Shown here piece by piece: positions 7,200 through 36,943 of a DNA stretch of 64,000 nucleotides. Source of the stretch: Latrodectus hesperus (Eukaryota > Arthropoda > Arachnida > Araneae > Theridiidae); contig CM075850.1 of the NCBI GenBank assembly GCA_037975125.1, positions 75,604,152 through 75,668,151 on the forward strand. The letters are read 5' to 3'. The position numbers and the translations under genes are program-made. The first letter of the stretch is position 1. Each line of letters starts with the position of its first letter. The notes beneath the pieces are model-generated. The model was not told where the DNA came from and did no database searches. It worked only from the letters and a program-made list of their open reading frames with translations.

Positions 7200-8474
7200 A
7201 TGAAAGACACTGTAGAATCCAGATTTGTGATGAACTTGCTTCATTTTGTATTCGAAGCACATGAACTTGATTTTCCTGAAATTTACAGCGAGGTATATCC
7301 TGATATAAACTATTCTAAGGACACTCATCTTACAACTGCTATGCGTGAAGGTATTATTGATAACATAGAAAACCTGACTACTGTTTCGAGACGCGCAGAA
7401 TGTGATGATATTGGTGAATATTTTTTGAAGCAGCTAATGGATAATTATAGTGAAGAAAATCTGCTAGACTTTATTACCTTCAAAGCGCGAGTTTTTTTGT
7501 TTGATAAACTTGATGCTGCTGATTTAGTTGACCAGTTTGAGCTCATAATGAATGTCTTTCAAGATGCAATTATAAGTGAGAAGTTTACCCGGAATTCCTG
7601 GGACAGACTTGAAATAGCGGCAAAACATGCTACAGTTATTGCCAAAGAAAGACGAGCGGCTAATACTCGGCGCTTGGCATTCGGCAAACAATTCCCGAAA
7701 GTACCAACTAGCTCAGGCTCATCTCTGGACACTACAGATGAGACAGAGTGGAAAAAATCCAAGCCAGCCATGACAAGTACATCTAGCAGCGACGGTATAA
7801 TTGAAACAGGAGCTGTATTGGCAGAATTTGAAAAACTACAGTTATCCGACTCTGACGATGATAAAACGCTAAAGGTTGAAGATTCTGTTTTCTTAGACGT
7901 TCAGGTAAGTAAAAATCAAAGAAAGAAGATTGGAATATCTCAGCGTACTGAAACGGAGCCGAGTACCAACGTAGAGTCTGGGGATATTACAAAATCTGTC
8001 ATTGAGGAACAGATTAAAAGTGAAATTCCTAAGAAAACAAAGAATTCTGAAGCAACTGCAGACATCTTTGCGAAAAGTGAAACGAATGTAGAAGGAATAA
8101 AAGCTACTAAGGAATCTCGTGAAATAAAGGCTGAACATGAAGTATCTTCTGAATGTTTCATTGAAGCAAAACATAAATCAACTCAAGCAACTGATACGGA
8201 AACAGAATCAAAAGAGTTTGAGGAACCTGATTCTGTGAAAAGTAGTGTTGAAGACAACCTGGCGTCTAATCGATCTGAATCCGCTAACACATCTGATGAA
8301 AGTGAGTCCCTAAGTAAAGATCTTCTAAAAATGAGTGATGCAAAGATGGAGTTAATGAAAGAGAAAGGTGAAGCTGAAATCTGTAATATAGACAGTGGAG
8401 AGGAACCTGCTATTGAAACTGATAAGGACACTCAACCCTCTGATGTTGAATATTCTGAAGTCCGAAAAAACTAG
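7200..8474 (+). CDS. Unknown 424-aa protein: helical domain plus acidic disordered tail
   Basis: An intact single-exon reading frame that I do not recognise. Residues ~5-148 are predicted by eye to be all-helical, with amphipathic segments around 9-20, 44-60, 71-80, 84-101 and 110-126. The domain closes with FTRNSWDRLEIAA (129-141). The same closing pattern occurs twice in the 408-aa protein at 14715, so the two are probably related. Residues ~165-424 are rich in Ser, Thr, Glu, Asp and Lys, with no hydrophobic segment, and are likely disordered. There is no signal peptide or membrane span. The ATG at 7200 is preceded by AAAATA, and a possible 3' splice site (TTCTTCACTAG, ending at about 7183) suggests a 5'-UTR intron. 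The 292-aa copy-B protein (36065) is its paralogue and is 132 residues shorter. Reality as a gene is supported by length and by frame-preserving differences between copies; function is unknown. Confidence 0.8.
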   Translation: MKDTVESRFVMNLLHFVFEAHELDFPEIYSEVYPDINYSKDTHLTTAMREGIIDNIENLTTVSRRAECDDIGEYFLKQLMDNYSEENLLDFITFKARVFLFDKLDAADLVDQFELIMNVFQDAIISEKFTRNSWDRLEIAAKHATVIAKERRAANTRRLAFGKQFPKVPTSSGSSLDTTDETEWKKSKPAMTSTSSSDGIIETGAVLAEFEKLQLSDSDDDKTLKVEDSVFLDVQVSKNQRKKIGISQRTETEPSTNVESGDITKSVIEEQIKSEIPKKTKNSEATADIFAKSETNVEGIKATKESREIKAEHEVSSECFIEAKHKSTQATDTETESKEFEEPDSVKSSVEDNLASNRSESANTSDESESLSKDLLKMSDAKMELMKEKGEAEICNIDSGEEPAIETDKDTQPSDVEYSEVRKN

Positions 8475-8620
8475 AAATTTAATATTTTTCAACTTTTGTG
8501 AAGTAAGATGTTTTAAGAAATGTTTTAAGTGTTTTTTTAATTAAGAGATTTGTGAACTTTGTTTCTTAAACCATAAGCTAAAATAGCTTTGTTTAAAGAC
8601 GATTGAGTGTTTTACTGTGT

Positions 8621-8626
8621 AATAAA
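8621..8626 (+). terminator. Candidate polyadenylation signal (AATAAA)
   Basis: The first canonical AATAAA after the stop codon of the 424-aa gene, about 147 bases downstream. The aligned position in copy B reads AATAAG. Such hexamers are frequent in AT-rich DNA, so the assignment is tentative. Confidence 0.4.
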
Positions 8627-9744
8627 ATAGGATTATATTTAAGACGTACGTTTGAATAATTTTTAAACCATCACATATACAAAATGTAAAAATTTGTTAT
8701 TTTGTGAGAAATGTTTTTAGTAAATTTTAATACTTATTAGATACACTTTTGAAATTTAAAGAATTGCTAATTATATGAAGTTTCTTTTAAAACGGAGTTT
8801 TTTGTTGAAGGAAAATTGAAATAGTCATGATCAAGCAAGCAGATAAATATGTTGTAAATAATTCGAATATTTCTTTATTAGCTATAAACGAATCATTTTC
8901 TAATTAAACAACAAATTATCTCTTAAACTTCGTCAATTGGTCGGGTCTTTTAAATTTGTTGAGATTGACAAAATTTGCGAAAATTCAAATACTTCTAAAA
9001 TTGAAACGAAGTTTTCGTACTCTTCGAACTGAAATTTATGTATTCATATAGTTATAGTTGAGATAAAATTGGAAAAATCAACTAAACTACCTTACAACTA
9101 TTAGTGCCTTTTTCATATTTTGTATAAAGCGTTAAATGTTTCACTTTAACTTAAAGAAAACTTAGGGATATAGTTTCTTTAGTTTACGTTCATAAAACTG
9201 TAAAGTTCAAGGAGGTTGGGAATTAATCCTTGATCCAAAAGTTTAGAGCTACGAAACTTGAATTGAAAAACCTATATTCCTTATTCCATACTAAAGTTTT
9301 GCTAAATGACGCAAGAACTTCCGATAGCTTCTAATAAATTTCATAAAAAGAAATGTTTTCTTATAACATTTAATCGCTACATAAAGTTCCTTGTGACGAC
9401 GCAAAAGTAAGTTTAGGTATTGCTAATCTCGCGTAACGTTAAATGATATAAATTTATTAAAATGTGTTATTACTTCCTCGCTGGAAATCTTTTAAAGTAT
9501 GGAAGTAAGAAAGGCGGTAATATATAAAAAGGTCTATGATAATTAGCATCGCAAAAAATCTTCACTATTCTCAATAGTTGTTTTAAAGCACAAAACATCT
9601 ATCTATATCATATTAAATACAATATCAACCTACTCTTCATTTCAATTATTTGAATTAGGGAAGCATTGGAAACTTTCTAAATAAGTCTATATATATATAT
9701 ACAGACTATTTCGAACGTTTTATTTTGAAGTCCGTATTTTTTGA

Positions 9745-9767
9745 CACTTGCAGAAAAACTGCAAGTG
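9745..9767. repeat. Perfect 9-bp inverted repeat with A5 loop
   Basis: CACTTGCAG, then five A, then CTGCAAGTG. The stem is perfect here but carries a mismatch in copy B (CACATGCAG near 38195), so it is not conserved between the duplicates. Confidence 0.7.
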
Positions 9768-11570
9768 CGTTCATATTTAGATTTTACTTCAATCATTTAA
9801 GTTATTTTAAAAACTTTTTCATATTGTAACTACTCAGATTTTGTAACTTTGTGTAAGAACTAGCAATTAAAATTGTATCGCATTAATCTTCTGTAGAGTT
9901 TATTAAGCTTTATCAGGATGTCATATTCTAAAAGTATCTTCATTGGATTACTCTTAGGAAATGACTTCAAGAAAACTGAATCGACTAACACATAACTAAA
10001 AACTAATGTAAATTTTAAAATTATCAAGTCAAAAACATTTTGTTACACTAACAACTTTATTAAAATATTTTATTACATTTTAGACAAGGAACTTTTATTT
10101 TTAAAAATATTAAATATATATGAAATATACTGTCTTAATATTTTGATAACGTTCATTTCTTTTAAATTAATAGTTTGAAAGAGACTAATCAGGTATGATC
10201 AAATAATTATATATGTACACATAATAAACATGATGCATCCAAAAAAACAAAGATTTGGTTTATTTCCCGAGAGAACATTTGTTCAAATAATATCAATAAA
10301 TACCTAAAGTAAATTTAAAAAACTGTGATTAATATAAGCCAAATTTTACAAATTATAAAACTTGCAATAAATCTTTCTAGAATATTCATTTCTAATCTAA
10401 TAACTCGAAGAAATGTTAAAAAAACTTTGTTAATTTTTATAAAAATGAAATGTTTTTGTATTTGTTTTAAAAAGAGAAACCTAATTGGAAAACGTTCTAC
10501 ATTATTCATTTGTTAAGGTCAAATTATTTCAGACCGAGATCTCGTAATTTGCAGCCTTTATATTTAGTCTCTAAGCTTATTTTCATACACGAAAGGTAAT
10601 TGAAATTTACCAGAAGATAAATTTAATTTTATATACATAATTCTGAGAGTATTACATATTTTCCGATGTTGTGAATTCGGTAATTTCACTTAATTCGCAC
10701 ACGATATTGATATTCTATTGAACTATTTTTGTTTTGTAGCTTCAAAAATTTCATTTCATGCTTATTATTTAAGTTTCTTCTTAAAAATGATTGTTCGACT
10801 TCAGAACTAAATCTTTAAGCCCTTCACTATCAAGATTTTTTAAATTATGGTATCGAAATTTAAGTTTTCTTTCCTGCTGTTTATAGCCTAAGTTACATCT
10901 TATGTTAATTTATATTTTCATTGCAATTCAATATATTTTAAGTTTTTAACAGGTGAAATAAGAGTTTAAGCTGAATATGCGAGTTGTTTATTCAATTTAA
11001 ATTATTTCAAACAGCTAAACATATTCCAATTTAGAACTGTTTTTAAAGTTTTATAGCATAATCCACCATAATTGCATTTTTTAAAGAGTTATTGCTAAAT
11101 GGTACTGAACATATCTCTCTCATTTTACTTTATATATAGCCGATATATTACTTGTTCATGTTTTAAAAATGAATCTAGATTTTAATTTGAAGACGAAATA
11201 TTGATACTGGATTAGCAAATTATGTTTACAGCTTTTGAACTTATTTCTTCATACATTTAAATAATGTCATGGTTGTGTGTTTAGTTTTATAAACTTGGTT
11301 TGGTTTCTAAATCACAAGAAATGTCTTGTAATCATGTATTGTAACATTTTTAATCATGGTGAAAAGGTATATTTTGATTTTTTCCGAAAATGTAATTCTT
11401 GATTTCAATTTATGACACACTGCTGTGTTTTTTTATGTACATATTTATAAGATATATTAAAGGCAATATATTTTAATTTTAACCAAATTAAAAGTGGTTG
11501 GGGATTTTTAATGGCGCAAAGTCCAAAAAGCACGCGTTGCTAATCTGCTCAAAGAATTTTCATTCCGAAA

Positions 11571-11607
11571 TTTTAGCTTAGAAGTGTATACACATTCTAA
11601 GCTAAAA
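11571..11607. repeat. Long perfect palindrome (13-bp arms)
   Basis: TTTTAGCTTAGAA (11571-11583) is the exact reverse complement of TTCTAAGCTAAAA (11595-11607). The 11-base interval between them begins with GTGTATACAC, itself a 10-bp palindrome. The whole could extrude as a long hairpin with a single bulged base. It lies in the segment unique to copy A. Confidence 0.85.
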
Positions 11608-14600
11608 ATATACAATGTCTATGTATTGGTGAAGTGGTTTGAGAAGAATGCATGCACTGAAATCATCACCTCGTCATTTGATCGTAACTCTGAAGAATAT
11701 ATCTATGGCTTTTATTTAACTGTTTCCATAAGCAGATAAATCTGCACAAAAATATATAGCAAATACATAGCCTAATCTCATTTGTAAAAATCAATTCTTT
11801 TTTCTTGAATTCTAATTTGGCACTCTTAAATAAAAGTGGGATCTGTGTAAAAATTTTCTCCCTATTATATTAAAATGAGTAGTTTTTGATAATATTGACT
11901 TTGTTAATTTTTTTAAGATTCATTGAGTCGTGAACATTACTGCTGTTATATAATAAGTATTAAGATAATTATTGCACTATTTTACTAGCCTATGCTTGGG
12001 ATAAAATCTCAATAATGCTAATTGCTGTTTGATATTCTACTTAAGCGACAGTGAGCTTCAACTTGTATTTTAGAAATTTGTAAAAGTTTATTTTCTAAGA
12101 TTTACAAATGTGATGTGCAATTCTGGCATAACTTAAATTTTTATGATTAAATCTGTTTTTGACGAATTATGAAACTCTAGCAAGAGAGAAAAGGTTACAA
12201 TTCATCAGAATGGATATTATACTCTGCTTTTGAGTTTCTTAAATACTTAATTGGGTCTTATTCAGACCACATTCATTATTCAGTTTCATATTCAGACCAC
12301 TTTTCAACCTTATGTGATAATACTATGGAATTGAAACTTTCAGCAATGCTTAAATAGGTATTTAATATGCTTATAAACCTTTAATGATAATTATAGTTAT
12401 TTCAACGTAAATTTATTAAATGCATTAACTGCACAGCTCTTGAAAATTTTAAAATGTTATTGGATTAACTTTATCATTAAATATATTTTAAGTCCTTTAA
12501 ATCATATCCAAAATTAACTGAAATTTGCTTACAGTTCCTAAAGAAAATTATAGTTTGAACAAGAAAAATGTTTTATTTAATCATTGTTCGTGACAATATT
12601 TTTACGTTTTAGTGTGAATGCAATCATTTTCAACTTATTTAAGTGGGTTCTTAACTTTTAAGGCTTACCCTAGCTTGACAAGAGAATCGAAACCATGAAA
12701 TGTTGAAATGAAGTCTAGTAAAGATAGATTGGTGAGCAAATCGTTTGATAAATTGTACTTCGAGGATGGATTTTATACATCTTCATATTAATTTATAAAG
12801 ATTGATAATGTTAATCGTATATGCTGCTAAAGTTGTATTGTCACAATTAGTTTCCAATCTTTTCTTCAGAGGTGCACACATCTTTAATCTTTTTACTACT
12901 GATCACTGGAAACATATGAACCATTATAAAATTTATAAGTATTAATTAATAGTAATATGGTATTTTAACACTTAAAGGTTATCTCTTGTTATAATCAATC
13001 AGATCGGAATTATTATGTTTATTTAAAAGTTTTGATTCTGCTAATACAGATTGCAGACTGCATAATAAGTAAATTTCATCAACAATTGGAGCTAAATTGG
13101 GATTAAACCTCATCAATTACGGGTTAAAATGTATTTAATTTACATTAAATATAATGCATTTAATGGGACATAAGTGACAGCTTGTGATATATTCTAAAAC
13201 TAATTGAGAAAATCTGATTAAGGAGCAGTAAAGTGATGAAATTAAAAAAAAAATTTTCTGTATTTTTAAGTGCTCCATACATTGATCTGAATTTTTCACT
13301 ATTTCAGTATCGAACCGACAATGTACTTGAATTGTGGGAATTATTTTTATCTTCAGGGCTGGTAAAATCCAAGCAAAAAGGTATTGGATAAAATGAGGTT
13401 CAAACTATTATATTGTGTTCAATTATAATTAACATTAGATTTTGAATAACAATAGTTTTTTTATGACATAAGTCGTTTATTCAAAGTGAACTCAGATTTG
13501 GGTCTTTTTTTCTTTTACTGCTAAAATATTTAAAATATTTTTTTGTTATAAATCAATAAATCATTTAGCTCTAAAAATAAATTATAAAGTGAGGTTTATT
13601 TCTGAGAATTAATTTGACAAATTTGCTTATAATTAAGTAGAAATGGTCTAGTACTTCTGAAAAAATTTTAATTATTGGAAAAATTTAAGCTTTTATTTTT
13701 ACTTAAAATACATATTTATGTATATTTCAAGAAATACGCATATTCTACAAATATAAATTCATTGCTCCTGAGAATTGTTTGCTTACAAAAGAAATTACTT
13801 TCAAATTAAGTTACATATTTTATCAAATTATACTGATTTTTTGCCTATTATTCACTTTTTCCTGAAATAATTTAGGCGCAATCTATTTTAAATTATAATT
13901 TTTTTATACTTATTTGTTTTTCTTAGATATATTTAAATACATAAATTTTTAAATTTAGAGGACCAGTACAAAAAATGCTTTAATAAACTTACAATGAATT
14001 AATCGGAAAGTATTTTATCTTAACTTTCTTAATTTCAACGGAAGTTAAAAATTTTTTAAATTGTTAGACAATTATTAATTTATTTTAGCTTTATTAATAA
14101 GACAATTATTGATTTCTTAAAAAAGACCTATTTTCAAAGTAATTTACCTAAATATTTAGTTTGCCTTGAATTCCATAATGTCGATAAAATTTTTAAAGAA
14201 ATTCATTAAAATTAATTTAAATAAGATTTTTGGAACACAACTTTTGATAAAATAAATTAATTTTTTGTGTTGAGAATATTCTGAGTGATTATAATATTAA
14301 TATGAAGAGACAATTATTCAACTCAAAATTTATATATTTGCTTATAATCATAATTATTGCAAAAATTAAGTAATCCGTATAACACTTTATCAATTACTTT
14401 TGAATACCCTGAAGTAATACAAGTCTGAATAAAAGTGTATTCAGAGAGTAAAATGCTATCACTTTTAGTTCCCAATATATGTGACCTCGAATAAAAGAGT
14501 AAACTAGTTACTTGAGCTGTTTGGCAACACAGGATATCACGAGCATCGATAAGTTGTAATAGTGATAAAATTAATTCGCACTCCGCGCCTAGTAGAAATG

Positions 14601-14654
14601 AAAAGTTATCGCTGACACGATTTCAAGTCAAAACAAAATTCCTATTCATTCGGA

Positions 14655-14751
14655 CAAGGTAAGCAGTAAAGCTATCGATATTATTTATTTTTATTATATA
14701 TCTTATGTGCTTTAATGTCATTAACAATTGAAATGACTTCATTTGGCATAG
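14655..14751 (+). other. Possible small 5' intron of the 408-aa gene
   Basis: AAGGTAAGC near 14655 matches a 5' splice donor. A pyrimidine-rich stretch ends in TTTGGCATAG at about 14751. If used, this intron would remove the first two ATGs of the frame (14715 and 14733), and translation would begin at the ATG of MISF (residue 24). This is a sequence match only; transcript data would settle it. Confidence 0.25.
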
Positions 14752-15941
14752 ATCTCGTTAAAGACCGTAAATCTGTTTTGAACATGATTTCTTTTATCTT
14801 TTTAAATCATGAAGAATATTCTACAAATAAACACGTGCCCGATAATCTTCAGAAATTACTCGGAGATCTACCCTTTTATGCCAAACAATTCTTCACTGAC
14901 AATATTGGAAATGCTTTGGGATTTTTAATGAAAAGCAAATTTACCACAGACGAAATAGCAGGGGGAATTGGTTCAGCAACTTTTTTCTTCCGAGAATCGA
15001 AGCTCTGGAAAAGTTACCAAAGTAGAGAGTTTCTTTATTTCTGCGCTTGCTATATTCCCAAAGCCGTGAAACAGTATTACAGTCTTAATAACTTCAAGCC
15101 TACCAGAGAAGTGTATGATGCAATAATTCGTATCATTAGACGCAATCGTCAGAAAGCTTTATTCAATGATGAATCTTGGAAATCCCTTGACGAAATATCC
15201 TCACGCATAATAATGGTAGAGACAATTCACAAAGAAGAACTTGAAAAAATCATGTCATCCATAACTCGGGTTAAATTCCTTAAAAGTAACTTGGACTTGG
15301 TGGAGGAGCGACAATTTCTGCTTGAAATGTTTAAATATATATCAAATTCTTTCTTCAAGAGTGTACCCAACTGGATTGATAGACTGTATGCCAAGATCCC
15401 TAACAAAGGAAAATCTTACTTGACACCAACAATTAAGAAGTCTGCACTAATTATTCTAAGAAATCAGATCTCCATATTTGAAAAGATTAAAGTTGAAGGA
15501 ATTAGGCAGTTTGACCAATGGCTTGGAAGGCTTGTGATATCTTTCCATGCGAGAGACTTCTTAGAATGTTGTGTTTGTCTGGCACATAACCATATTAAGG
15601 AATATTTTGAGGAAGATAAATTTCACTCACCTTCACAAGCATATCAAGCGTTACTATACATTTTCAAACAAAATAAAGAAGCTGGAATGTTTACCACTTT
15701 GTCATGGGAGGTTATAGAGAAAGCTGCAATGCAAATTATAGATGAAAATGACACTCATGCCACTGAAAGCTTTGATGGCACTTTAATTAATGCAGAAAGC
15801 AGTACGACGGGAGAAAATCTAAACTTCGAAAATATCGATGAAAGTTCAAGCACTTATGAAACTGGCTCTCAAATTCACATCATACAAAATCTAATATCTG
15901 ATGACGGTTATAAATGTAAATTCTGCTGCATCATTTGTTGA
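14715..15941 (+). CDS. Unknown 408-aa protein with two tandem helical domains and CaaX-like tail
   Basis: An intact single-exon frame that I do not recognise. It appears to hold two copies of one ~140-residue helical domain, residues ~15-170 and ~196-345. The second half of each domain aligns without gaps over 53 residues (103-155 against 279-331), with about 15 identities by hand count. These include R, F, L, C, C, K, Y, F, Y, A and I, and the closing F-x3-S-W (150-155 and 326-331). The same domain is seen once in the 424-aa protein at 7200. Residues 346-400 are acidic and Ser/Thr-rich. The last nine residues, KCKFCCIIC, contain five Cys and end in CIIC, which fits a CaaX prenylation box with extra Cys for palmitoylation; this suggests a lipid-anchored cytosolic protein. 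There is no signal peptide or membrane span. It lies only in copy A, because the copy-B counterpart is deleted. Confidence 0.8.
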   Translation: MSLTIEMTSFGIDLVKDRKSVLNMISFIFLNHEEYSTNKHVPDNLQKLLGDLPFYAKQFFTDNIGNALGFLMKSKFTTDEIAGGIGSATFFFRESKLWKSYQSREFLYFCACYIPKAVKQYYSLNNFKPTREVYDAIIRIIRRNRQKALFNDESWKSLDEISSRIIMVETIHKEELEKIMSSITRVKFLKSNLDLVEERQFLLEMFKYISNSFFKSVPNWIDRLYAKIPNKGKSYLTPTIKKSALIILRNQISIFEKIKVEGIRQFDQWLGRLVISFHARDFLECCVCLAHNHIKEYFEEDKFHSPSQAYQALLYIFKQNKEAGMFTTLSWEVIEKAAMQIIDENDTHATESFDGTLINAESSTTGENLNFENIDESSSTYETGSQIHIIQNLISDDGYKCKFCCIIC

Positions 15942-16225
15942 AGAAAATTTTATATTATGCAAGTTTTTAACTTTTTAAAATTGTAAATCAAGATCCTTAG
16001 GTTTAATTTTTTATGCAATATACTTTAATGATTTTTCCTATATTTTTATACTTTAAATTAATGTAAAGATACATTTGTAAATATATATAATACCTTGAAG
16101 TAATTTACAATGTTATTTTACACTGAAACTTATTTTGATGTTATATAAAAATTGAAAAACTAGAAGTGTTGCTTTATTTCCATGCTTAAAGATAGAACAT
16201 AAACTGTTAGCGAATTCTCTTATTA

Positions 16226-16231
16226 AATAAA
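16226..16231 (+). terminator. Candidate polyadenylation signal (AATAAA)
   Basis: A canonical AATAAA about 285 bases after the stop codon of the 408-aa gene. Tentative because of base composition. Confidence 0.35.
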
Positions 16232-19200
16232 TTTTTTAAAACTTTTATTCAATTTTGCTTTCTGTAACATTTAATTTTAAATTTTAACTAACGCATTATA
16301 AGCAATATTTAACGAATTTCATTAATAACAGAAATCTTATCCTATTTTATTTAAATAACTATCGCAAATTTGATTGCATTATTAAAGCAGTATCGAGACT
16401 AAACTTTTATCAAGATTTTATTGTGTTCATATGAAATTTTTTAATACCTTAAATTTGATAACAAAACAATAAAATATGCATTAATAAAAATATTACTTTA
16501 CAGACATTTACAGTGTAGTAAACTTTTTTAGTTTGCAGTGATCGTTGTTTTTATATAAAATTTATTTTCACAAAAACACTTTATATAGAATTGATAAAAT
16601 ATTAAGCATTTAAATAACATTTCCTATCATTAATGCACGGAAACTTAGTTAATTTAAAGAAATGTAAGTATGTCAATTTTCATTATTTCAAATAATTTTA
16701 AATACTTTATGCATAGACTAAACGTATTTTAGTGGATTTCATTAAGTAAATCATCCACTTTGCATTAACATTTTTTGAAGATAATAAAATTGCATTAATA
16801 ATATTAAATATTGGTAAATGTTTTAATGTTACTCTAAAAAAATTAAATATCATGATCAAACAATTTCGTAAAGTCAATTGTTAAATATAAATTTAGTTGG
16901 AATTGCTTCTGCGACTTTTGTTAAAATGCCGATATAAAATATTATGAATATTCTTTTAAAAAAACCGCAAATTTTTAATCTGCTTAAATTAAAATTTACT
17001 ATCACTAACTATTAAAATAAATTTGATTAAAATTGAAATTTTCAGAAGTTTTCTGTTTGCTTACTATTTTGTTTTTTAGATAGTATATTAGGAATTTTGA
17101 TTTTCTGTGGATTCGAACACTATTAGAACTGTTCATTGTGATATTTTAATACACTTTGTAAATATATTGATAGTTGTTTAAGAATTTCCAAACAGATATT
17201 AATTTACTAATATTTGTGTTTTATCTATTGTATGATACTCTAAATTTATTTATAAATTCAAAATATTTTCTTGACAAATATTGCTACAAAAATGTTAGTC
17301 TTTTGGCTTAAGTACCCCAAAGTTTAGTTTCTGTGATGAATTAATCTGGAATAACACCACAATGTGCCAAGTTTTCTGTTTTATATATTATGCTATATTC
17401 ACAAATGTTAAATATAATTTTATGTATTTTCTTTTTTTAAATTATATGTTACAGCTAAAACCAATTCCAAACATCCTTTTTCAGCACATTATCATTTATT
17501 TCTATTGATTTATTTCATATTTCTCCTCATTTTAGCTTTTTCCTGGTGGAGCTCATTCACTCTTGTATGTTTAGAAATTAATATAAAAATTTATAATGTC
17601 ACAGAGATTAAAAAAATAAAAATATTTTTTCGATTCAATTTCGATTCCAGTGTCTAAATATAAAATATACAAAAAATTATTAATAATATTCACTTTACAA
17701 GAATGTAATTGTATCAATTACTTTTAGTTAATATTCTATATATAACTTTGCTTGGGCTAGTTTGTTCTAAGCTGGAATTTGCGCCCACAAGCACTTCATA
17801 TAATCAGTTAATCATGGATAAAATAAGTTAAATGTTATGAATTAAATAGCTTTATAAATAAAACAGTATGAAAACTTTTATAAAATTTACAAGGAATGAT
17901 CTGATATGTTTCTACTTCACGAGGAAACAAATCCGCAGAAGTTAAATTTTTGTTTATTTATAATATTAATGATGGTATAATTTAAAATATCTTACATCCT
18001 GTTATTGTAATTTTGAATGTAAAATGACACATTTGTCTACACAATTAATAAAATTAAATACAATTTCATGTATCAATAACAATAATCGTCTAGGCCTTTA
18101 TATTAAAGCTTAATTTAGTAAAATTCAAGGCAATGGAATAATACCCATAAAAGTTTAAGTGAAATATGCAAGCAATATGCAAACAAAACTAATATTTTCC
18201 TAATATAGAAATGCTTTTTAAAATATATAGAAATTAAAGTACTTAAAAATGAATTGCGTAATGAAGAATATTAGAGTTTTGCTCGCGCACGCGCGCATTC
18301 TGAATATATAATCTAAAATATTTTATTAAGTTGATTTATGATTAAGTTAAATATATTTTATTTACTTCATTTTATTTTGGTAAATTATATTTTTGATTTG
18401 GCGTTATTCATAATAAATTAAAAATACTCTTAAAATCAAATTTCATTCTCTGGCTAAAATGTAAAAACGTATATGTCTAAAAGAGCGTGTGCTGAATTTT
18501 AATACATTTTATGTTTTTCTGCTATTTTAATTATTCTTTTGTAATATTAATAGGAACGAAATACTTATGTTAACATACCGTATTTGATTCAATTTACTCA
18601 AAAAGAAGGACGGTGTTAATTTGTTTTTGAAATTGCCTACTGAAATATTCAGTGTAATCGGTAAGCATTTTTGAATTCCCTTGTCAGTAACTAGCGCACA
18701 GCTTGTCCTACTTTGGACCTTGCACCACAAAACCAATCAACCATTATCTATAGTTGAGTAAATATAATTGGTAATCTACTAATTTGAATCATATGATGTC
18801 TGAAACTAGGCAACGCTTTGAGACTTATAATTTGTGAAAAATATCTTAATTTATTTCTTCACTAAAATTCGCATTTTTTAAATTTAATTCATTCTACTAA
18901 TTACTATTTTAACATTAGCTTCTTTGAAACACATCATGTATTAAAATTTAAATAATAAAAGTTTAGAATATCTATAAAATATATATTGATATAAAGGTAA
19001 ATAAAGCAGTATATTAGAACTGTATAACTTAAAACTTTTAACTTAAAATATTTCACGTAGCAAAATCTGAATCCATTTATAAGCTATTGAAGAAAGCAAA
19101 ATTTTATAAATGCTTGATTAAGTTAAGGAAAATATTTCATATTATAACGTAAGAAAATACTCTGACTTAAAGCTGTTAATTTGTAATGATTAAGAAATTT

Positions 19201-22731: not shown

Positions 22732-22753
22732 CAGTAAATATACTGTGAATATT

Positions 22754-24371: not shown

Positions 24372-24383
24372 GACATCCAGCAC

Positions 24384-27566: not shown

Positions 27567-27733
27567 TTATCTGTTGAAGAAAGTCTAAATTTGTGTAATT
27601 TAGCATTTGTCGGAAAAGATCTAGTTCTAACTCTAGCTAGCCACACTTCTTCAAGGCGAGAATTAATATAATTACGGTGAATTTTCGTGATAGAAGACAT
27701 GTGCGAAAAGTTAGAGGCATATTTACTATTTTT

Positions 27734-28228
27734 TCATTCGTTGTTATTATAATTGATAAAAATGTTTTTTATAATTTGGATAAGGTCTTCAGGTGAAATT
27801 GAGTGCAGAATATAACTTTTATTAATGGCCGATTTTGACAGAGCATCTACTTTTTCGTTCCCTGCAATTCCGGAATGACCAGGAATCCAAACTAATTGAA
27901 TAGATTTGCAAATCTTAGTTGCATTTCCTAAAGCTGATCCGATGTGTTGAAGGATGGTTGGGGAAGAGGTTGAGAGAGTTTCCAAACTTCTTAGACAGGA
28001 TAAGGAGTCTGATAATATGATATAGTTGGAGGGAGAAATACAGAATTTAGTCACCGCCAGATATAAAGCCAAAGCCTCAGCTGTAAAGATGGAATTAGAG
28101 TTATTGATTTGCCCGGAAACAAAGGAGTTATTACTGCTGTCATAAACAGCGATTCCAAGTTTATTTTCTATTTTAGATGCATCAGTAAATAATAATATGT
28201 GATTGGACCATTCTGAAGTACTATGCAT
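27734..28228 (-). pseudogene. LINE RNase H domain
   Basis: A 164-residue open stretch with all four expected catalytic positions: D16 in FTDASK, E51 in TAEALALYLA, D74 in ILSDSLSCLRSL, and D128 in NEKVDAL, preceded by IPGHSGIAGNE. In life this domain degrades the RNA strand after reverse transcription. The domain is intact, but it is separated from the RT by a stop or frameshift near 28230. Confidence 0.9.
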
Positions 28229-28238
28229 TTCAAAGAGG

Positions 28239-28622
28239 TCATTGATAGTATTTGTTGGAAGATTTTTTAGTCTGAAAAGTATATTTTCTAAGAAATATTT
28301 TAAAATTATTATTAACAGAAGTAGGTTTTGCAGGAACTCTTAAAATATGTGATTCTTGAATTCCATTTTCTTCAAGCCATTTTTTCACTCGCAAAGATAG
28401 AGGAAGAGCACCCGAGATACGGCTGCATGGCATTGATTCCCACAAACTACCACATGGAGATCTAGTAGAAAGTGCAAGATTTCTAATGTACATCCTTGTA
28501 GAGAGAAAGTTCTGTCTTACAGTAAAAGGTAAGACCCCTGATTCTTTCAGAAGAAGTGGAATTGGTGTCCAGCGAGGAATACCTGTAGCAATTCTAAGAA
28601 CTGAGAGATATATCGGATCCAA
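28239..28622 (-). pseudogene. LINE ORF2 linker between RT and RNase H
   Basis: Contains LRIATGIPRWTPIPLLLKESG-type sequence, the conserved connector (L-R-x-x-T-G-x-x-x-x-T-P) downstream of the thumb region in RNase H-bearing LINEs. The frame is shifted relative to both neighbours, showing decay. Confidence 0.8.
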
Positions 28623-28753
28623 GATTTTTCGGTCTGATAAGCTCGCAGATGTAAATACATGACATACATAATCGAGGCTACTTGTAATGAAGGACTGAAC
28701 AATTTGAAGTAAGTGATTAGTTTTTGCTCCCCATCTGTTACCTGCAATTGCTT

Positions 28754-30057
28754 TTAAAACATTAATTTTCTTCTGGATAGATTTTTTTTCATTTGAAAAT
28801 TATACTTGAAGGTTAAGTTATTAGTAAAATAGAGGCCCAGAATTTTTATGTGCTTAGACCAAGAAATAGGTAATTGGTTGATAGTTAGTTCAAAATTTAC
28901 AGGATATTTTTTGGAAGAGAAATCAATAACTGAACATTTTGAGGAATCAATTTTTAGTTTCCATTCATCACACCATTGTTCCAGTTTTATGATTGCAGTC
29001 TGCATATTTTGCTGTAGACTTTCTTGTGATGTATGAGCAGCCAAAAGGATTATGTCATCAGCATAAATAAAACACTTAATGTTAAGAGAGAGAACTTCGT
29101 AAATATCTGACATATAAATCATAAAAAGAAAGGGAGAAATAACACTGCCTTGAGGAACACCTCTATTAGAGAAAGTGGGTTGAGATAAGTTCCACGCCAT
29201 TTCACTTTAAAACTTCTATCCGATAAAGAATCCAATATCCAATGAGCAGCATTTCCTCTGATATCAAATTGGAGGAGCTTATAAATAAGACCGTCTGGCC
29301 ACACTGAATCATAAGCTTGAGATATGTCTACAGTTGCGCATATGATATATTTTCTCTGTGAGCGTAAAGCAATAATATGATGATGAAGCATAGAAAGAAC
29401 ACAATCGCAACCTCTATGAGGCATAAATCCATGATGATTTTGATGAAAATATTTGGAAAGGGAGATATGATTTATTAGACGATTTAATATCATGCGTTCC
29501 ATGACCTTACATAGAACGCTTGTAAGAGATATTGGGCGATAAGAATTGACTGAAGTAGTATCTTTCCCAGGTTTTATTATAGGAATTATGATGGATTTTT
29601 TCCAAGACGGGGGAACAATACCGCTTAACCAAGAGTTATTTATGAGTGACAAAAGGGATCGTAAAGCTATATTTGATACCCCCTTTAAAATTTTAACAGA
29701 TATTAAATCAGGACCAGCTGAAGTATTTTTGCATTTAGAAATCGCCAATTGGAGTTCTGAGAGCGAGAATGCGGAGTTATATTCTAAATCAAAATTTGAA
29801 CTTAAATCAAGAGGTAATACTTCAGTTGCCGATTGACGAGAATAAAATTTGGCAAATAAGTTAGTCTGAACAACAGGGTCCGAAATAATTGAAGTTTCGC
29901 TAGAAATTAGTAGATGATGAGTTGGTGAGTCAGTAGATCTATTTTTAAGCTTTTTAAGAATAGAATAAATGTCCTTAGATATTCCAGCGTTTGTTATAGT
30001 TTTATCCCAGAAATTAGTGGAAAGGGTTAGAAGAAGCTGATGAAGTTTTGCAGACAT
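28754..30057 (-). pseudogene. LINE reverse transcriptase (frameshifted)
   Basis: The upstream part (30057-29119) shows the fingers and palm: SAGPDLIS, PSWKKSIIIPIIKPGKD, SYRPISLTSVLCKVMERMI, GFMPHRGCDCVLSMLHH and VDISQAYDSVW (first catalytic Asp). The downstream part (29200-28754), in another frame, shows NRGVPQGSVISPFLFMIYMSD, the catalytic YADDIILL box, and the W-K-L-K-x-x-x-S-K-C motif. The two parts overlap in coordinates because of a frameshift near 29150-29200. Residues for catalysis are present, but the frame is broken. Confidence 0.92.
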
Positions 30058-30278
30058 TCGCTTGTACTGTATCCACAGAGTCTGTTTAAGAGAACTTTTC
30101 GCTTTCCTCCAAAGTTTTCTTTTTTACCCAAAAGATAACAACATTCCGATGTCCACCACGGAGGATATGACTTTAACGGAAAGATTTGTTTTTTCCTGAA
30201 TTTATCAAGATGGTTTTTGCATAAAATTTGGAATTGATCTACAGATACTAGTCCGTTATTAGCAATTTCAGTGTTCAT
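30027..30278 (-). pseudogene. LINE segment between endonuclease and RT
   Basis: Contains PPWWTSECCYLLGKKE, which matches the conserved P-W-W-x-x-E-C/L motif preceding the reverse transcriptase in many arthropod LINEs. It belongs to the same broken ORF2. Confidence 0.75.
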
Positions 30279-30319
30279 TGAATTGAAGAAGCCAGACCAT
30301 AAAATTCTATTGCGGGAAG

Positions 30320-30980
30320 TACCTTTCGAATAATCTTTATTGTAGATTTTAACACTTGTTGAACAGGGACATGGTCACTACCATAACTATCTGAACTGAC
30401 TGAGAAAGTACAAAAAGGAAAAATATCAGGAGATACAAAGTTATAATCGATAAGGGATGGTCTATGGTGGAGTCCGAAGTGAGTAGGCTGAGAGGTATTT
30501 AAAAGACAGATGTTGCTATCCAGTATCCAATCGAGGAATTCTGAAGAATCGGGAGAGTTTGACTACCAATCGCCGAACTTCGTATATTAAAGTCTCCAAT
30601 TATTATGAAGGGAGGATGAATATTAGATAAAATGCTATGGAACAAAGAACTTGAAAATTTACCGTGTGGAATGTATACATTTACTAAAGTAAGAGATGAT
30701 TTGGTTATAGTAATTTTTATAGCTAGTATTTCTGTATCGTTATCTTCTGAGCAGGATATATTTAAAACTTGCACAGGTAGAGATTTATCAACAGCAAAAA
30801 GAAGTCCTCCACCACGGCCATCTTGCCTATCTAATCTAATTATTGTTTTATTACAAATTTGAAATTTTTAAGAAACGTTTCTTGAATTGCTAGGACCTCG
30901 GAAGATTGAAAGTACGGAAGTTTTACATACGGGCGCTTAGATAGAACGCTTCTTGCATTCCAAGAAATTAAATTGAACAT
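30320..30980 (-). pseudogene. LINE AP-endonuclease domain (frameshifted)
   Basis: From the 5' side there is a SWNARSVLSK-type start (about 30970), then LAIQET (about 30890), IRLDRQDGRGGGLLFAVD (about 30840-30790), LVNVYIP and IIIGDFNIRS (GDFN around 30600), and a Y-x-P-S-L-I-D-like block near 30450. These are the standard motifs of the APE-type nicking endonuclease of LINEs. At least one stop separates the first block from the second. Confidence 0.85.
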
Positions 30981-31179
30981 TAAATATAAACGAAAAACCT
31001 GAACAGTTATTGAAAATCAAAAAAATGTGCGCTCGTAGTAAAAGAATATTAAAAAAATTATGAATGTTTTTTACGACTTCTTCCTGGTTCAATTCTTTCT
31101 TTAATGTTAGGTTCTGCATATTTAATATTTGGTTGAGGAGATTTCATAATAGGTTGTTCGGGAGATATTATTTGCTGAT

Positions 31180-32330
31180 TCACAGAATTTTTGGACTTAT
31201 CTTTCTTGACTGGATAGATCTTGCACGACTCTTTCTTGGAGGAGATCTAGAAACTGATCTAGCTGGATTCGAACATGTTCGCATACATTCTATCATAAAT
31301 GAGAACATTTGTTGACTCATTTGATCTTGTCTAGCCTGTATCGCAGGTAATTTTGCTTCAAAAATAGAAGCCATTTCAGTCACTGCTTTTTTAACAATAT
31401 CAGTTATTTCATTTTGATTCGGCACGAAAGGAATATGACTTTTGGTTACACTGGAGTGACTGGTTTTTAAAGATTTATTATAACGCCTTCTCGCTTCAAT
31501 AAATGAAAGGTGGTTCAAGCTCTTAAATTGTAAGAATTTTTTTTCTTCAAGCCTCGTAGGGCAGGAAATGTCATTAGCTGCATGATTTTCCTGACAGTTT
31601 ATACATTTAGGTGTTTGATTGGTACAGGGAGAGTCTTTATGGAATGTTCCACAGTTTTTACATAGGAAAAAACTTGTGTACATTTTTTCGTAGGGTGAGT
31701 GAATTTATAGCATTTTCCACATTGACGAACGTTGTCAATAAAAGGAGAAATTGGAATGATGGAATAGAATAAATTAATAGTTTGAGGTAAATGATGTCCA
31801 ATGACGCTCACTAAAATATTTTCACTCAATTCTTCAGAATTCTTTTTTGTAAATCTTTGTAAGCTTAATATCGTTAAGCCATTTTGCGCAATTTCTTCAG
31901 CAACAAGATATAAAGGTAAATCTACATTTATTTCTTTTATAAGAAATCTTGAAGAAATGTATTCAGGTTGAAAACTGGAGTTAACAGGAACTCCAAGAAT
32001 ATTATTTATCTTGCTTATTTCAACAGCAGCATCTGGGCAATTAGTTTCGAATAGAAGCTTACCTTGACGGGTGTGTTGAATTTGTATTATTTTCTTGTGA
32101 TTCTTTACAAGTTGAATTATTTCTTGCTTTAAATTATAAGGTTTCTTTGGAATAGATGCAGTACCATCAGTGGGAGACAGGAAAATGAAGAACTTAGTTA
32201 TACCATTTTCCGCAGCTAACTGGATTAGTTGTGGAATAGAATCTTCGAAAGTCAATAATCTTGAAGTATTTATTTTTGGAATGCGTAAATCGCAAACCGT
32301 GTAAATCATTTCAGTCTCAGCTTCAATCAT
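31180..32330 (-). pseudogene. LINE ORF1 (gag-like, zinc knuckles; frameshifted)
   Basis: Starts at the ATG at 32330, ~170 bases inside the element. Residues 1-243 run in one frame and end near a first zinc knuckle, CGKCYKFTHPTKKC (C-x2-C-x4-H-x4-C). A frameshift in an A6 run near 31680 moves the reading into the frame carrying CKNCGTFHKDSPC (C-x2-C-x3-H-x4-C) and CINCQENHAANDISC (C-x2-C-x3-H-x6-C). A basic, Ser/Arg-rich tail (SRSPPRKSRARS) follows. ORF1 proteins of this type bind the element RNA. The array of CCHC knuckles is complete apart from the frameshift. Confidence 0.88.
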
Positions 32331-32503
32331 TTTGAATCCATAATAAAGAAAAAAATAACAAATTAAAATTTAAATAGTAAAAATAAAAGAACAAAAATAC
32401 TCAATCTTAGTCAATCAAATAATGAGAAGTCAGACGATAATTTCAACACGAAACTCCAACGAGAATAAATTTCGCCAGAATCAAGAGTTCATTGATCAAT
32501 ATC

Positions 32504-32514
32504 TATAATTCCTT
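32504..32514 (+). repeat. Target-site duplication of the LINE, right copy
   Basis: TATAATTCCTT, exact repeat of 27138-27148. Copy-A-like sequence (TTTGT...CTC) resumes directly after it. Confidence 0.9.
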
Positions 32515-32796
32515 TTGTTTCTCGGTGGTAACTGAATACATGTTGCCATTGCAATTTGATAAAATAGTTCTGTTACAACTATATAATTCATATTTTTAAT
32601 ATAATATGATTTGTTTCGAAACAAGAAAACTGATGGCTTTCTATAGACACATATTTTAATGTAATACCAGAGCCAGTGTCATGCGATTACTTTTTCTTTA
32701 TACATTGATAAATAAACATCTTTTAGTGTAGCATTGATATCACACGTTTAAGTTTGTTGTAGAATTTAATTAATCTCATAGTCAAATAGTAAGCCT

Positions 32797-32925
32797 ACTG
32801 GTCTTCGATTCAAAAGTTTGTGGGTTTTGGATGTTGTGATTCGGAATCCACTTTTTAAACGTAGGAGTTTCAATAATTGGTCTAAGCAGTTATTAAAACT
32901 CCGACCCTCTATCTTAGAAGCACAA
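32797..32925 (+). mobile_element. Decayed tRNA-derived SINE remnant, copy B
   Basis: Counterpart of 3766-3905, with the same ATTCAAAAGTTTGTGGG and ATTCGGAATCCAC phrases. Confidence 0.45.
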
Positions 32926-33771
32926 AACTATAACTTAAATAACTACATACCACGCAAAATTTATTTAGATATTTAACTTTAAAGTTAGCTGTAAACATTT
33001 TAAATTTGCATCTTTCTAATTATAACAAATATTTTAATGAGGCAAATTAAACAGTCTCGCCTTTATTAAATTACCATAATATTTAATTAAATTAAATTAT
33101 TTTGAAATTTAATAATTATTTATTTCAAATATATTAAAAACATTTAAAAGAATTCACCTTTTAATAAATTTACACGAGGCCTATTTAATTAAAATATGTA
33201 ACTGAATAAATAATATTATTGATCTCAAAATAGAAAGCAATTACATTTAATTTTGACATTCTGCATATTCTTAATTTTATCGCATGAAAGATTCTCTATT
33301 AAAATCAGAAAACATTATCTACAGAAAATACTTTCCGTTCTTTATACGAATAAAAGGGCATTTTTAAAAAAGAGAATTTTAATTTTTCTATGAGGATAAT
33401 TCAAAATCCTCTCATCTTAGAATGAAATTATATTCTACCTCACCAAAAATTAACAATAAATTTAATTGAAAGTAAAAATATTAATGTATGTGAAATGTGG
33501 TGTTTTCAGAAAATTCTATTAATATTTCAGCAACAGAATACAAAATTGGTATTATCCAAGAATAATTTAATGTAATTAATGAGTATTGTATTCAGCAAGG
33601 CGGATAGTGCATTTCTGAATTTTTATAAATATTTTGGACTTATTTTGCTTGAGTAGCAGTTATGAATCGGCATAAGCAAGAAAACTATACAAGACATAAC
33701 AGATACGCAAAGATATCTTTTAAGAACATAAGCCTTGATTGATAAACAAAAATATGCATTTTAAATTGAAT

Positions 33772-34319
33772 ACGTCTTGACTGGAGTTTAAAGTAAATTT
33801 TAATTGATGTGTGTGTGGTAAATTGGCTTATAAATATGTCCTTTTCAAATGATGTAAGGCTTGATAGACCTACAAAAATGTATACTTTAAATTACGTTAG
33901 GTGTCAAACAAAAAGCTGACGTTTTAAATTATCTAAGCCTTGATTCGATTCAAATATACACATTTCAATGATGCAAGGTTTGATTTACAATAGACTTCTG
34001 ACTGCTACTGGCACAAATTTACATTAAATGATTTCTAGTGTTTGACGTTCTTTTTTATTGACTTAATTCTTTATTTAAAAGATAAAATATTGAAACTAGC
34101 ATCCATGTTTCATGGTATTTATTATTAAGAGCAAGCATATATTATCAATATAACTGAGCAAATTGAGAGAAAGTAAATAAATCTAACATTTGTGTGCTTC
34201 AATGTTATAAAATGTATTGTTGAAATTTTATTTTATTAACTATCTTAATTAGTGTTAATGTTAATAGCAGAATAAGTTAGTCCTAGTAATAACTATAATT
34301 TAGCAGTAATCTGCATACT
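33772..34319 (+). repeat. Copy B-specific segment with degenerate ~80-100-bp repeats
   Basis: Not homologous to copy A. A motif like AAGGCTTGATxxAxxxACAAAAATATxCATTTTAAAT recurs with changes near 33735, 33859 and 33939, with a partial copy near 33983. The first occurrence is the one shared with copy A (near 4722). This looks like a decayed minisatellite. No coding region. Confidence 0.5.
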
Positions 34320-34339
34320 CATCTATTTAACCATTACAG

Positions 34340-34804
34340 CACTTGTGACCATGCAGATAAGATGTCTATCTTCTCTGCTGTTAGTGATAGGGGGTCGTTG
34401 AGATCCTGCATGACGTTCCGTATGATTGTCCTGAACCCATCGATTCCATATTCTACTAACAGTCATGGGGTATCGACCGACGCGAGCAGCAATATTGCGG
34501 TACGATAAACCGCAATCCCGGTAGGCTATAATCCTTCCTCGATCAAAGTCAGACACGTGCTGATAGGCATTACAACAACTTTCTTTGCCGAAAACAACGT
34601 TGAAACGGAAATTGAGTATGAGAAAACTGCTGCGAAATCTCTGGTTTTATACACATTGTAGATATCGCTACTGTCGCCTGCTTTGTATGAATGCGCTGAA
34701 AATCTAATCATTTGCATATCACAGCAAGTTCTACCTGTCATGCAAATATCACGTGTGTGGTGTGCCGCTTTCCTGGTGTAGCAATTTTAATGGTCAGTAG
34801 TGTA
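34340..34804 (-). mobile_element. Truncated Tc1-type DNA transposon (5' end and start of transposase)
   Basis: The right end (34804) begins with TA and then, in minus orientation, CACTACTGACCATTAAAATT, a typical Tc1-family terminal repeat. The transposase ATG is at 34556. About 70 residues follow: MSDFDRGRIIAYRDCGLSY, RNIAARVGRYPMTVSRIWNRW and SQRPPITNSREDRH, which form the paired helix-turn-helix DNA-binding region. Homology stops near 34340, so the DDE catalytic domain and the other terminus are missing. The element is in the non-homologous part of copy B and is dead. Confidence 0.88.
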
Positions 34805-36064
34805 CATTCTAATTTATATATATGCATACATGTTTAAGAGAAAATGTTGAAATTTTTGCATTGGTTTTATTTATCCAAAATCTTGGTAAATAGCTAACTA
34901 TAAAAATTTGAATGAACTTAAAAATGAATTATAATTAAGGTATTTGAATGAAAAGAAATATTTGCCGATGCCAAAATTGCTAATCTGCTCAACGTACCTT
35001 AAAACAGCAGGAGCATACCTTCAGCAATAAAATTGCTAATTTCGAAACATCAGATAAACTAATTACCCGTTAAGAAAACGCTAATGCTAACATTTTAAAA
35101 TTAGTACCAACAGTTTGACCATTGTTATATATATATACACTTAACATCCCTCTTGATTTCTGATATATAAATATGATTTTGATGTCATTTTGCCATTTTT
35201 CTCTTATTTGCAAACACTTCTCTGTTAAACTAAAATTACTCAATTTTTAAAGGGTGGTTCTACAGATTTTTTATTATTTTTAATAATATTTAAAAATAAG
35301 TTACTGGTTATCAATCACATAATATTAAATCTAGGTTTTTATATAAACCACTTTATAAAACTTTGTATCATTACTTTGCATATTCAAGCGGGCTGCAAAT
35401 AAATTTAAACACAAATTCAAAAGGAATATTTTAAGCAATGTGAATTATTAATTTATTTCGGAATACCATTTGCCATAGTTATCAAAATTAAAACTGTAAA
35501 ATAGTGTTCTCAAAGTGACGGCAACCTATTAAATAAGAGCGTTCTGCTCGTCCGTAAAATATTATATATTCGAAGCACCTGAGAAGAAAAACATTCTAAA
35601 AAGAGTAGAAATTCTCAAATCTTGCAGTTATCGTTCTGTAAGCTGAGATGAAGAGCCTCAGCTCAGGTGATGCATTCATCAATTGAAAATGATTCAAAGT
35701 TACGAAGAGGGTGGCTGTAATTAGGAATTTCGGTTGGCAGAAATATGCTATCGGAAACATATTGCAATAAATCCATCTCACCATTAATCAATAAACTAAG
35801 TCGGCAGATGTAATTTAAATGTTATCTGTTCCGCATTGATTTAGTCGTAAAATTCATTTGCATACTGGTTTTTTATAAACTTTATGGCAGGTGGCAACAT
35901 TTTTGTTAAGTTCTTATGTATATATACTCAACATCTAAGAAGGAATGTCGTTTCATGTGTTAGTTGGTATCTAACATCACTTTCATTTTTTCTCTAACTT
36001 CAACAAAGCATTGTATAATTTTGTATATTGATTACGTGTTCATCACTAGTTTGAAATAAAAATA

Positions 36065-36943
36065 ATGAAGGACACGGAAGAATCCAGATTTGTGATGAAC
36101 TTGCTTCATTTTGTATTCGAAGCACATGAACTTGATTTTCCTGAAATTTACAGTGAGGTATATCCTGATATAAACTATTCTCTGGACACTCATCTTACAC
36201 CTGCTATACGTGAAGGTATTATTGATAATATAGAAAACCTGACTATTGTTTCGAGACGCGTAGATTGTGATGCTGTTGGTGGATTTTATATGAGGCAGCT
36301 AATGGATACTTATAGTGAAGAAAATCTGCTAGACTTCATTAGCTTCAAAGCGCGAGCTTGTTTGTTTGAGGATGATCCTGCTGTTTTAGTTCACGAGTTT
36401 GAGCTTATAATGAATGTCTTTCAAGATGCAATTATATGTGAGAAGTTTACCCCCGATTCCTGGGACGGACTTGAAAAGGCGGCAAAACAGGCAACAGTTA
36501 ATGCCAAAGAAAGATTAACGGCTAATGCTCAGCGCTTGGCATTCGGCAAAAAATTCCCAAAAGTATCAACCAGTTCAGGCTCATCTCTGGACTCTACAGA
36601 TGAGCCAGAATGGAAAAAATCCAAACCAGCCATGACAAGTACATCTAGCAGCGACGGTATGATGGAAACAGGAACTTCATTGGCAGAATTGGAAAAACTA
36701 GAGTTATCCGACTCGTACGATGATAAAATGCTAAAGGTTGAAGAATCTGTTTTCTTAGACGTTCAGGTAAGTAAAAATCAAAGCAAGAAAATTGGAATAT
36801 CTGATGGTACTAATAAAGTATCGGACACTGATACTGAAATGGAGCTGAGTACCAATGTAGAGTCTGGTCATATTATAAAATCTGAAATTGAAAAGGACAC
36901 TCAATACTCTGATGTTGAATATTCTGAAGTCCGAGAAAACTAG
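36065..36943 (+). CDS. Unknown 292-aa protein, copy-B paralogue of the 424-aa protein
   Basis: An intact single-exon frame colinear with 7200-8474. The helical domain (residues ~5-147) is conserved, including the closing FTPDSWDGLEKAA. The first ~65 residues are nearly identical, while residues ~66-150 differ at many positions. Relative to copy A it lacks one codon in the helical domain, has 8 extra codons near KVSDTDTE, and lacks about 139 codons of the acidic tail, rejoining at EKDTQ. All three differences are multiples of three. The start context (AAAATAATG) is the same as in copy A. A possible 3' splice site (TTCATCACTAG) lies just upstream. The downstream AATAAA of copy A is AATAAG here. 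Function unknown; it may be a diverging paralogue or a gene under relaxed constraint. Confidence 0.75.
   Translation: MKDTEESRFVMNLLHFVFEAHELDFPEIYSEVYPDINYSLDTHLTPAIREGIIDNIENLTIVSRRVDCDAVGGFYMRQLMDTYSEENLLDFISFKARACLFEDDPAVLVHEFELIMNVFQDAIICEKFTPDSWDGLEKAAKQATVNAKERLTANAQRLAFGKKFPKVSTSSGSSLDSTDEPEWKKSKPAMTSTSSSDGMMETGTSLAELEKLELSDSYDDKMLKVEESVFLDVQVSKNQSKKIGISDGTNKVSDTDTEMELSTNVESGHIIKSEIEKDTQYSDVEYSEVREN

What the first reader, a model, noticed from the sequence alone, without database searches (positions are those of the whole stretch)
7200..36943. An apparently undescribed helical domain family, present four times in three clustered genes
The 424-aa, 292-aa and 408-aa proteins appear to share a ~140-residue helical domain: once in the first two, twice in the third. 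Within the 408-aa protein, residues 103-155 and 279-331 align without gaps, with about 15 identities of 53. The closing motif F-x3-S-W-x2-[LI]-[ED]-x-[AI]-[AS] is found in all four (FTRNSWDRLEIAA, FTPDSWDGLEKAA, FNDESWKSLDEIS, FTTLSWEVIEKAA). Spacing from the leading V-x2-R motif to the W is 129, 140 and 135 residues for the 424-aa protein and the two 408-aa domains. I know of no family with this signature.
Basis: partly seen in the sequence, partly recalled or inferred. Interest (0 to 1): 0.8.

Follow-up and report, generated by a model that had tools for sequence, protein, structure and literature searches.

The report
Hidden Bcl-2-like gene family, tandem domains
The repeated helical domain is most likely a heavily disguised version of the Bcl-2 cell-death-control fold, spread as intron-free genes in this animal's genome and sometimes doubled within one protein; its role in cell death or immunity is untested.

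Summary
The shared domain is real. The closing motif occurs exactly four times in the six-frame window, and the two halves of the 408-aa protein align far better than shuffles. Two of the four copies (424-aa, 292-aa) are 77% identical products of a tandem duplication, so they are not independent.

The domain is probably not a new fold. An AlphaFold2 model (pLDDT 79.9) matches Bcl-2 proteins in all 50 listed structural rows. Its invariant Trp falls on the BH2 Trp. The same genome holds eight further related loci, plus three single-frame genes whose best Pfam hit is Bcl-2, below cut-off. These three bridge the family to canonical Bcl-2: Prob 80 and Prob 96, with 0 of 100 block shuffles reaching either. 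Direct similarity to canonical Bcl-2 is undetectable, and a second structure model was too poor to use.

Best reading: an intron-free, fast-diverging Bcl-2-fold radiation. Its three two-domain members end in cysteine clusters without a hydrophobic tail segment. The mechanism (helix-binding regulator of death or immune signalling) is inferred. Verdict: new variant of a known kind, not an undescribed fold.

The parts
7200..8474 (+). 424-aa single-frame ORF: one Bcl-2-like domain, then a long acidic Ser/Glu-rich tail; no hydrophobic tail anchor
7200..7694 (+). domain copy 1 (residues 1-165); AlphaFold2 pLDDT 79.9, Bcl-2 fold; BH2-like Trp is residue 134
14715..15941 (+). 408-aa single-frame ORF with two Bcl-2-like domains in tandem
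14715..15242 (+). domain copy 2 (N-terminal domain of the 408-aa protein, Trp155)
15243..15764 (+). domain copy 3 (C-terminal domain of the 408-aa protein, Trp331)
15912..15938 (+). C-terminal cysteine cluster KCKFCCIIC (CaaX-like ending; possible lipid anchor, inferred)
36065..36943 (+). 292-aa single-frame ORF, tandem-duplicate paralogue of the 424-aa gene with a shortened tail
36065..36556 (+). domain copy 4 (Trp133)
3324..26984 (.). unit 1 of a head-to-tail segmental duplication carrying the 424-aa and 408-aa genes
   Evidence: blocks 86.7-96.2% identical
26981..44517 (.). unit 2 of the duplication, carrying the 292-aa gene; lacks the counterpart of about 10469-20339 with the 408-aa gene

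Best explanation
The domain is an extremely diverged Bcl-2 fold. Indicated by results here: a predicted seven-helix order, a BH4-like first helix, a BH2-like Trp at the start of the last helix, and a chain of profile similarity through single-frame relatives to canonical Bcl-2 genes of the same genome. Inferred: a processed (intron-free) copy of a Bcl-2-like gene founded a lineage that spread by tandem and dispersed duplication, doubled its domain within some proteins, and in the window proteins has no recognisable transmembrane tail. Inferred mechanism: the domain binds amphipathic helices of partner proteins, BH3-like in a groove or through another face, and so tunes cell death or immune signalling. 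The two-domain forms would be bivalent versions held at membranes by lipid on their C-terminal cysteines. The confidence given is for the Bcl-2 origin; for the mechanism I would say 0.4.
Confidence: 0.78

Rival explanations
1. A genuinely separate helical-bundle family that only resembles Bcl-2 in arrangement.
Against: All 50 listed structural rows are one superfamily; full-length colinear bridge profile, 0 of 100 block shuffles; Trp and BH4 registers coincide.
Confidence: 0.15
2. Bcl-2 fold working without a BH3 groove, as an inhibitor or scaffold in NF-kB-type immune signalling, like the non-apoptotic poxvirus Bcl-2-like proteins (these recalled).
For: BH1 and BH3 signatures are absent while the fold is predicted; coding sequence diverges at least as fast as its flanks (90.0% against 93.4% identity). 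PMC7022251 (passages) says BH motifs may be absent in viral members and that NF-kB modulation is not groove-mediated.
Against: No partner or expression evidence; the best structural matches are groove-type Bcl-xL, Bcl-2 and CED-9.
Confidence: 0.3
3. The founder was captured from a large DNA virus carrying an intron-free Bcl-2 gene, rather than retroposed from a host gene.
For: Intron-free domains; viral Bcl-2 proteins are among the matches, e.g. an isopod iridescent virus BCL2-like protein (E 1.5, probability 0.38).
Against: No relative was confirmed among 132 pattern matches in viral contigs, queried with A1 only; 7 other window ORFs scanned in Pfam gave retroelement or helix-turn-helix hits or none; host bridging genes exist. 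The surroundings were not otherwise searched for viral genes.
Confidence: 0.15
4. Decaying pseudogenes without function.
For: dN/dS is not significantly below 1; L015 has a broken frame.
Against: Open frames of 424, 408 and 292 codons in DNA of 22-34% GC, and of 377 and 357 codons in relatives; both duplicates stay open although 14 and 27 mostly frame-breaking indels lie in the flanks.
Confidence: 0.06

Closest known systems
Canonical Bcl-2 family (Pfam PF00452; Bcl-xL, Bcl-2, MCL1, BFL1, BAX, BAK, CED-9)
   Same: Predicted fold and helix order; BH4-like helix 1; Trp of BH2 in the same structural place; linked by profile through single-frame genes of the same genome.
   Different: No NWGR, no LxxxGD, no GGW (usually xSW), no hydrophobic tail anchor in the window proteins, no intron after the BH2 Trp, below Pfam detection; some members have two domains.
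Arachnid canonical Bcl-2 and Bax (tick RhBcl-2 and RhBax, PMC8336254, abstract and outline seen)
   Same: Bcl-2-family proteins in arachnids.
   Different: Those carry conserved BH domains and interact through BH3; the window proteins lack these signatures. The window's taxon is itself unverified.
Motif-poor viral Bcl-2-like proteins (poxvirus and iridovirus types)
   Same: Bcl-2 fold with few or no BH motifs (PMC7022251, passages); single-exon and fast-diverging (recalled).
   Different: These are chromosomal genes with acidic tails or doubled domains; no viral context was recognised in the little that was scanned.

Membership tests
Bcl-2 family (PF00452) | Bcl-2 fold (helical bundle of about 7-9 helices in the Bcl-xL order) | tested here: inconclusive
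Bcl-2 family (PF00452) | Score over the curated Pfam cut-off (31.4 bits) | tested here: not met
   No PF00452 hit for the 3 window proteins or for the 9 domains of A5. The three bridges hit PF00452 below cut-off.
Bcl-2 family (PF00452) | BH1 signature NWGR | tested here: not met
   Absent from the sequences. In 8 of 11 aligned domains an R or K stands just before x-F-L at that place (in one of them across a gap), which is suggestive only; the 424- and 292-aa domains have E.
Bcl-2 family (PF00452) | BH2 with invariant Trp (GGW) | tested here: inconclusive
   Trp invariant in the 9 domains of A5 and structurally on the BH2 Trp; GG is replaced, by xS in 6 of the 9.
Bcl-2 family (PF00452) | BH3 LxxxGD | tested here: not met
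   Not in the three window proteins. Some prosurvival members also lack BH3 (PMC7022251, passages).
Bcl-2 family (PF00452) | Homology by profile | tested here: inconclusive
   Transitive: Prob 80.0 then 95.8. Direct: Prob 0.5.
Bcl-2 family (PF00452) | Helical ligand binding or control of apoptosis | not testable with these tools
   No binding or cell data.
Bcl-2 family (PF00452) | C-terminal transmembrane anchor (most members) | tested here: not met
   Largest 19-residue hydropathy in the last 60 residues: -0.33, 0.65, -0.28 for the 424-, 408- and 292-aa proteins. One relative, L021, has 2.46 there, in the stretch that aligns with the fifth helix.
Spidroin N-terminal domain (PF16763) | Match over the curated cut-off along the domain | tested here: not met
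   One relative (L008 N-domain) matched 31 residues, E 0.0069, 16.9 bits against a cut-off of 27; none of the window proteins.

The most novel reading that the evidence does not exclude
An arthropod lineage has evolved a large, fast-diverging radiation of intron-free Bcl-2-fold proteins invisible to sequence searches. It includes tandem double-Bcl-2 proteins (the first, to my knowledge), held at membranes by a cysteine-cluster lipid anchor instead of a transmembrane tail, which act as bivalent sponges or scaffolds in cell-death or immune signalling.
Probability: 0.3. Interest if true: 0.8.

Novelty: new variant of a known kind. Interest (0 to 1): 0.62.

Why it matters
[quoted passage not shown] A hidden radiation in one such genome, if the taxon is as supposed, would mean that gene counts by sequence have missed members. 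It would also supply two-domain Bcl-2 proteins and architectures without a tail anchor, and a ready test of what the Bcl-2 fold can do once its BH motifs are gone.

Tried and rejected
Sequence routes that gave nothing significant: Pfam, NCBIfam and PDB sequence searches of the window proteins; homologue searches of 5.8 billion proteins with P0003 (residues 1-175), P0002 and A5; viral contigs with A1. Weak PDB and Pfam hits (MarR, eIF2-beta, TRAPP, VsdE, LRRK2, Olfactory_mark, Spidroin_N) disagree with each other and are taken as chance.

Direct Bcl-2 profile match: none. A global-mode score above all 150 column shuffles did not survive a circular-shift control, 35 of 69 shifts at or above it. 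I later judged circular shifts an unfair null, since they keep long matching stretches, and used 11-column block shuffles instead. In one search circular shifts also reached the bridge-canonical score (58.1 against 57.5 local; 56.5 against 51.0 global) but not the family-bridge score (36.2 against 37.2; 33.5 against 36.3).

The Trp-anchored gapless comparison put the predicted register first of 25 for four of five domains and second for one. The Trp-Trp match itself supplies part of that, so I give it little weight.

CaaX farnesylation as a general feature: rejected, because the other two two-domain proteins end in CPGCKCH and CKCCPCKCS; only a cysteine cluster is shared.

The 408-aa gene's segment as a mobile insert: no target duplication was seen at its edges, and the best inverted match between its ends was 9 bases; a deletion in unit 2 is simpler.

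Dropped rows: L036c (6.1 bits, best of 300 shuffles 9.7), L019:4578-4940, L017:1758-1973 and fragments in L031, L010 (a transposon). L015's first helix lies in another frame and was left out.
Full report
OBSERVATION. The three ORFs are at the stated places. The internal repeat of the 408-aa protein has 15 identities in 53 and scores 96, against a best of 31 in 60 shuffles. The closing motif occurs four times in six frames of the window, at the four stated sites. Spacings 129, 140 and 135 are right. Similarity between the 292-aa and 408-aa proteins is significant (phmmer 1.9e-4 over 1294 ORFs); none was found between the 424-aa and 408-aa proteins directly.

GENOMIC SETTING. The window lies in a 1.64-Gb assembly of 2912 contigs, on contig C1 at 75.60-75.67 Mb. 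A head-to-tail segmental duplication fills much of the window: 3324-26984 and 26981-44517, blocks 86.7-96.2% identical. It produced the 424-aa/292-aa pair (77% protein identity over 277 columns). Unit 1 alone holds about 10469-20339 with the 408-aa gene. The joint in unit 2 shows no target duplication, and the best inverted match between the segment's ends is 9 bases, so loss from unit 2 is the simpler reading (inference). The 292-aa tail is shorter because of a deletion in the coding sequence.

CODING EVIDENCE. Both duplicates stay open. Upstream and downstream flanks carry 14 and 27 internal indels, of which 1 and 5 are multiples of three; the coding alignment carries 6, of which 3 are. dN/dS is 0.72 (0.48-1.16) overall, 1.05 (0.53-2.48) in the domain and 0.56 (0.31-1.0) in the tail. 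The coding sequence is 90.0% identical where flanks are 93.4%. So the genes evolve fast, and purifying selection is not proven.

RELATIVES IN THE SAME GENOME. Searches that were answered and fetched stretches gave, by a family HMM: L006 (377 aa from Met) and L008 (357 aa) at C1:81.35-81.37 Mb, both two-domain; L035 and L021 in the same 60-kb neighbourhood; L015 at C1:75.397 Mb, with a frame break; L016/L032 and L031 at C1:122.45-122.46 Mb; L003 on C10. That is eight loci outside the window, a lower bound. Each listed domain is read in a single open frame except L015. L021 and L035 score 17.6 and 17.2 bits, against best shuffles of 6.2 and 6.4 in 300 each. In a tree of 12 domains the N-domains of the two-domain proteins group together, with L015 among them, at support 59; L006C and L008C pair at 86, while the C-domain of the 408-aa protein stands apart. 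This weakly suggests an old doubling. All three two-domain proteins end in cysteine clusters (4, 3 and 5 Cys in the last ten residues), against 0-1 in the ten others tabulated, and show no hydrophobic tail segment; one single-domain relative, L021, has a hydrophobic stretch in its last 60 residues.

THE BRIDGE. PF00452 against the same genome found four genes above cut-off (L037-L040), each with GT directly after GGW (4 of 4), as expected for a Bcl-2 intron at that place (position recalled). It also found three below cut-off (L041-L043), each a single open frame running on through the BH2 region (3 of 3). Scanned against all Pfam, Bcl-2 is the best hit of each: E 2.3e-5, 1.3e-3 and 0.052, all under the curated score. 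L043 has a long acidic tail like the 424-aa protein. In both, 0 of 100 block shuffles and 0 of 100 column shuffles reach the score, and reversed profiles stay at or below 11.2 and 15.5. Circular shifts stay just below the family-bridge score (36.2 against 37.2) and just above the bridge-canonical one (58.1 against 57.5); they keep long matching stretches, so I count them as an unfair null. Family plus bridges against canonical gives Prob 53.0, over the BH1-BH2 part only (columns 86-146). Leaving out any one bridge lowers family-bridge to 36.9-39.8 and bridge-canonical to 87.5-95.1. Without the window's rows the family reaches 55.3; the window's four domains alone reach 11.3, and the six domains of two-domain proteins 2.3. 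Family against canonical directly gives 0.5 (14 of 100 block shuffles and 1 of 100 column shuffles at or above). Single-sequence scores are weak: against the family HMM only L043 (11.5 bits) clearly exceeded its 300 shuffles (8.5), L040 did so marginally (4.0 against 3.6), and L041, L042, L037, L038 and L039 did not; an HMM of canonical plus bridges scored no family member above shuffles.

READING. Fold, registers and the bridge agree on a Bcl-2 origin; each alone would be insufficient. The family fails the usual membership marks (Pfam score, NWGR, LxxxGD, tail anchor), so I do not file it as a canonical Bcl-2 family member but as a diverged Bcl-2-fold lineage. Intron-free structure suggests a processed founder (inference); a viral founder is not excluded. 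Function is inferred: helix binding that tunes death or immune signalling. The loss of BH1 and BH3 marks makes a groove-independent role (as in some poxvirus proteins, recalled; PMC7022251 passages) a serious rival.

LITERATURE. Searches for spider or arachnid Bcl-2 expansions, tandem Bcl-2 domains and intron-free expansions showed no listed title describing this family. Two lists were cut (15 of 46 papers, 10 of 17), and the library holds open-licence papers only. Beyond listings I saw passages of PMC8998228 and PMC7022251 and the abstract and outline of PMC8336254. PMC8998228 describes reduced Bcl-2 sets in flies and nematodes, exceptions among other Ecdysozoans, and conserved intron/exon boundaries in Bcl-2 genes; PMC8336254 describes tick Bcl-2 and Bax with BH domains.

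Noticed in passing
window 27149-32503, minus strand: A non-LTR retrotransposon (RNase H and reverse transcriptase, and a sub-cut-off endonuclease match, in several frames) inserted in duplication unit 2, flanked by an 11-base target repeat; the empty site is at 3484 in unit 1. Its 3' end carries AACCT repeats resembling the arthropod telomere repeat (resemblance recalled).
   Followed up: partly
window 34323-34646 minus; 41655-41960 plus: Fragments that look like Tc1/mariner-type transposase: helix-turn-helix matches in Pfam for the first; the second by eye only, with no Pfam hit.
   Followed up: partly
L041:1339-1989, L042:1315-1902, L043:988-2034: Three single-frame, sub-threshold Bcl-2 homologues on contigs C2, C13 and C11, one with a long acidic tail; probably worth describing in their own right.
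   Followed up: partly
L015:1041-1725: A family member whose first-helix region appears to lie in a different frame from the rest, so probably a broken copy.
   Followed up: no
L036:6722-7774: A 351-aa ORF beside the C1:81.3-Mb cluster with an acidic N-terminal half and a helical C-terminal half that looks related by eye, but not above shuffles.
   Followed up: partly
window 22322-23116: A local tandem duplication, about 79% identical, inside duplication unit 1.
   Followed up: no
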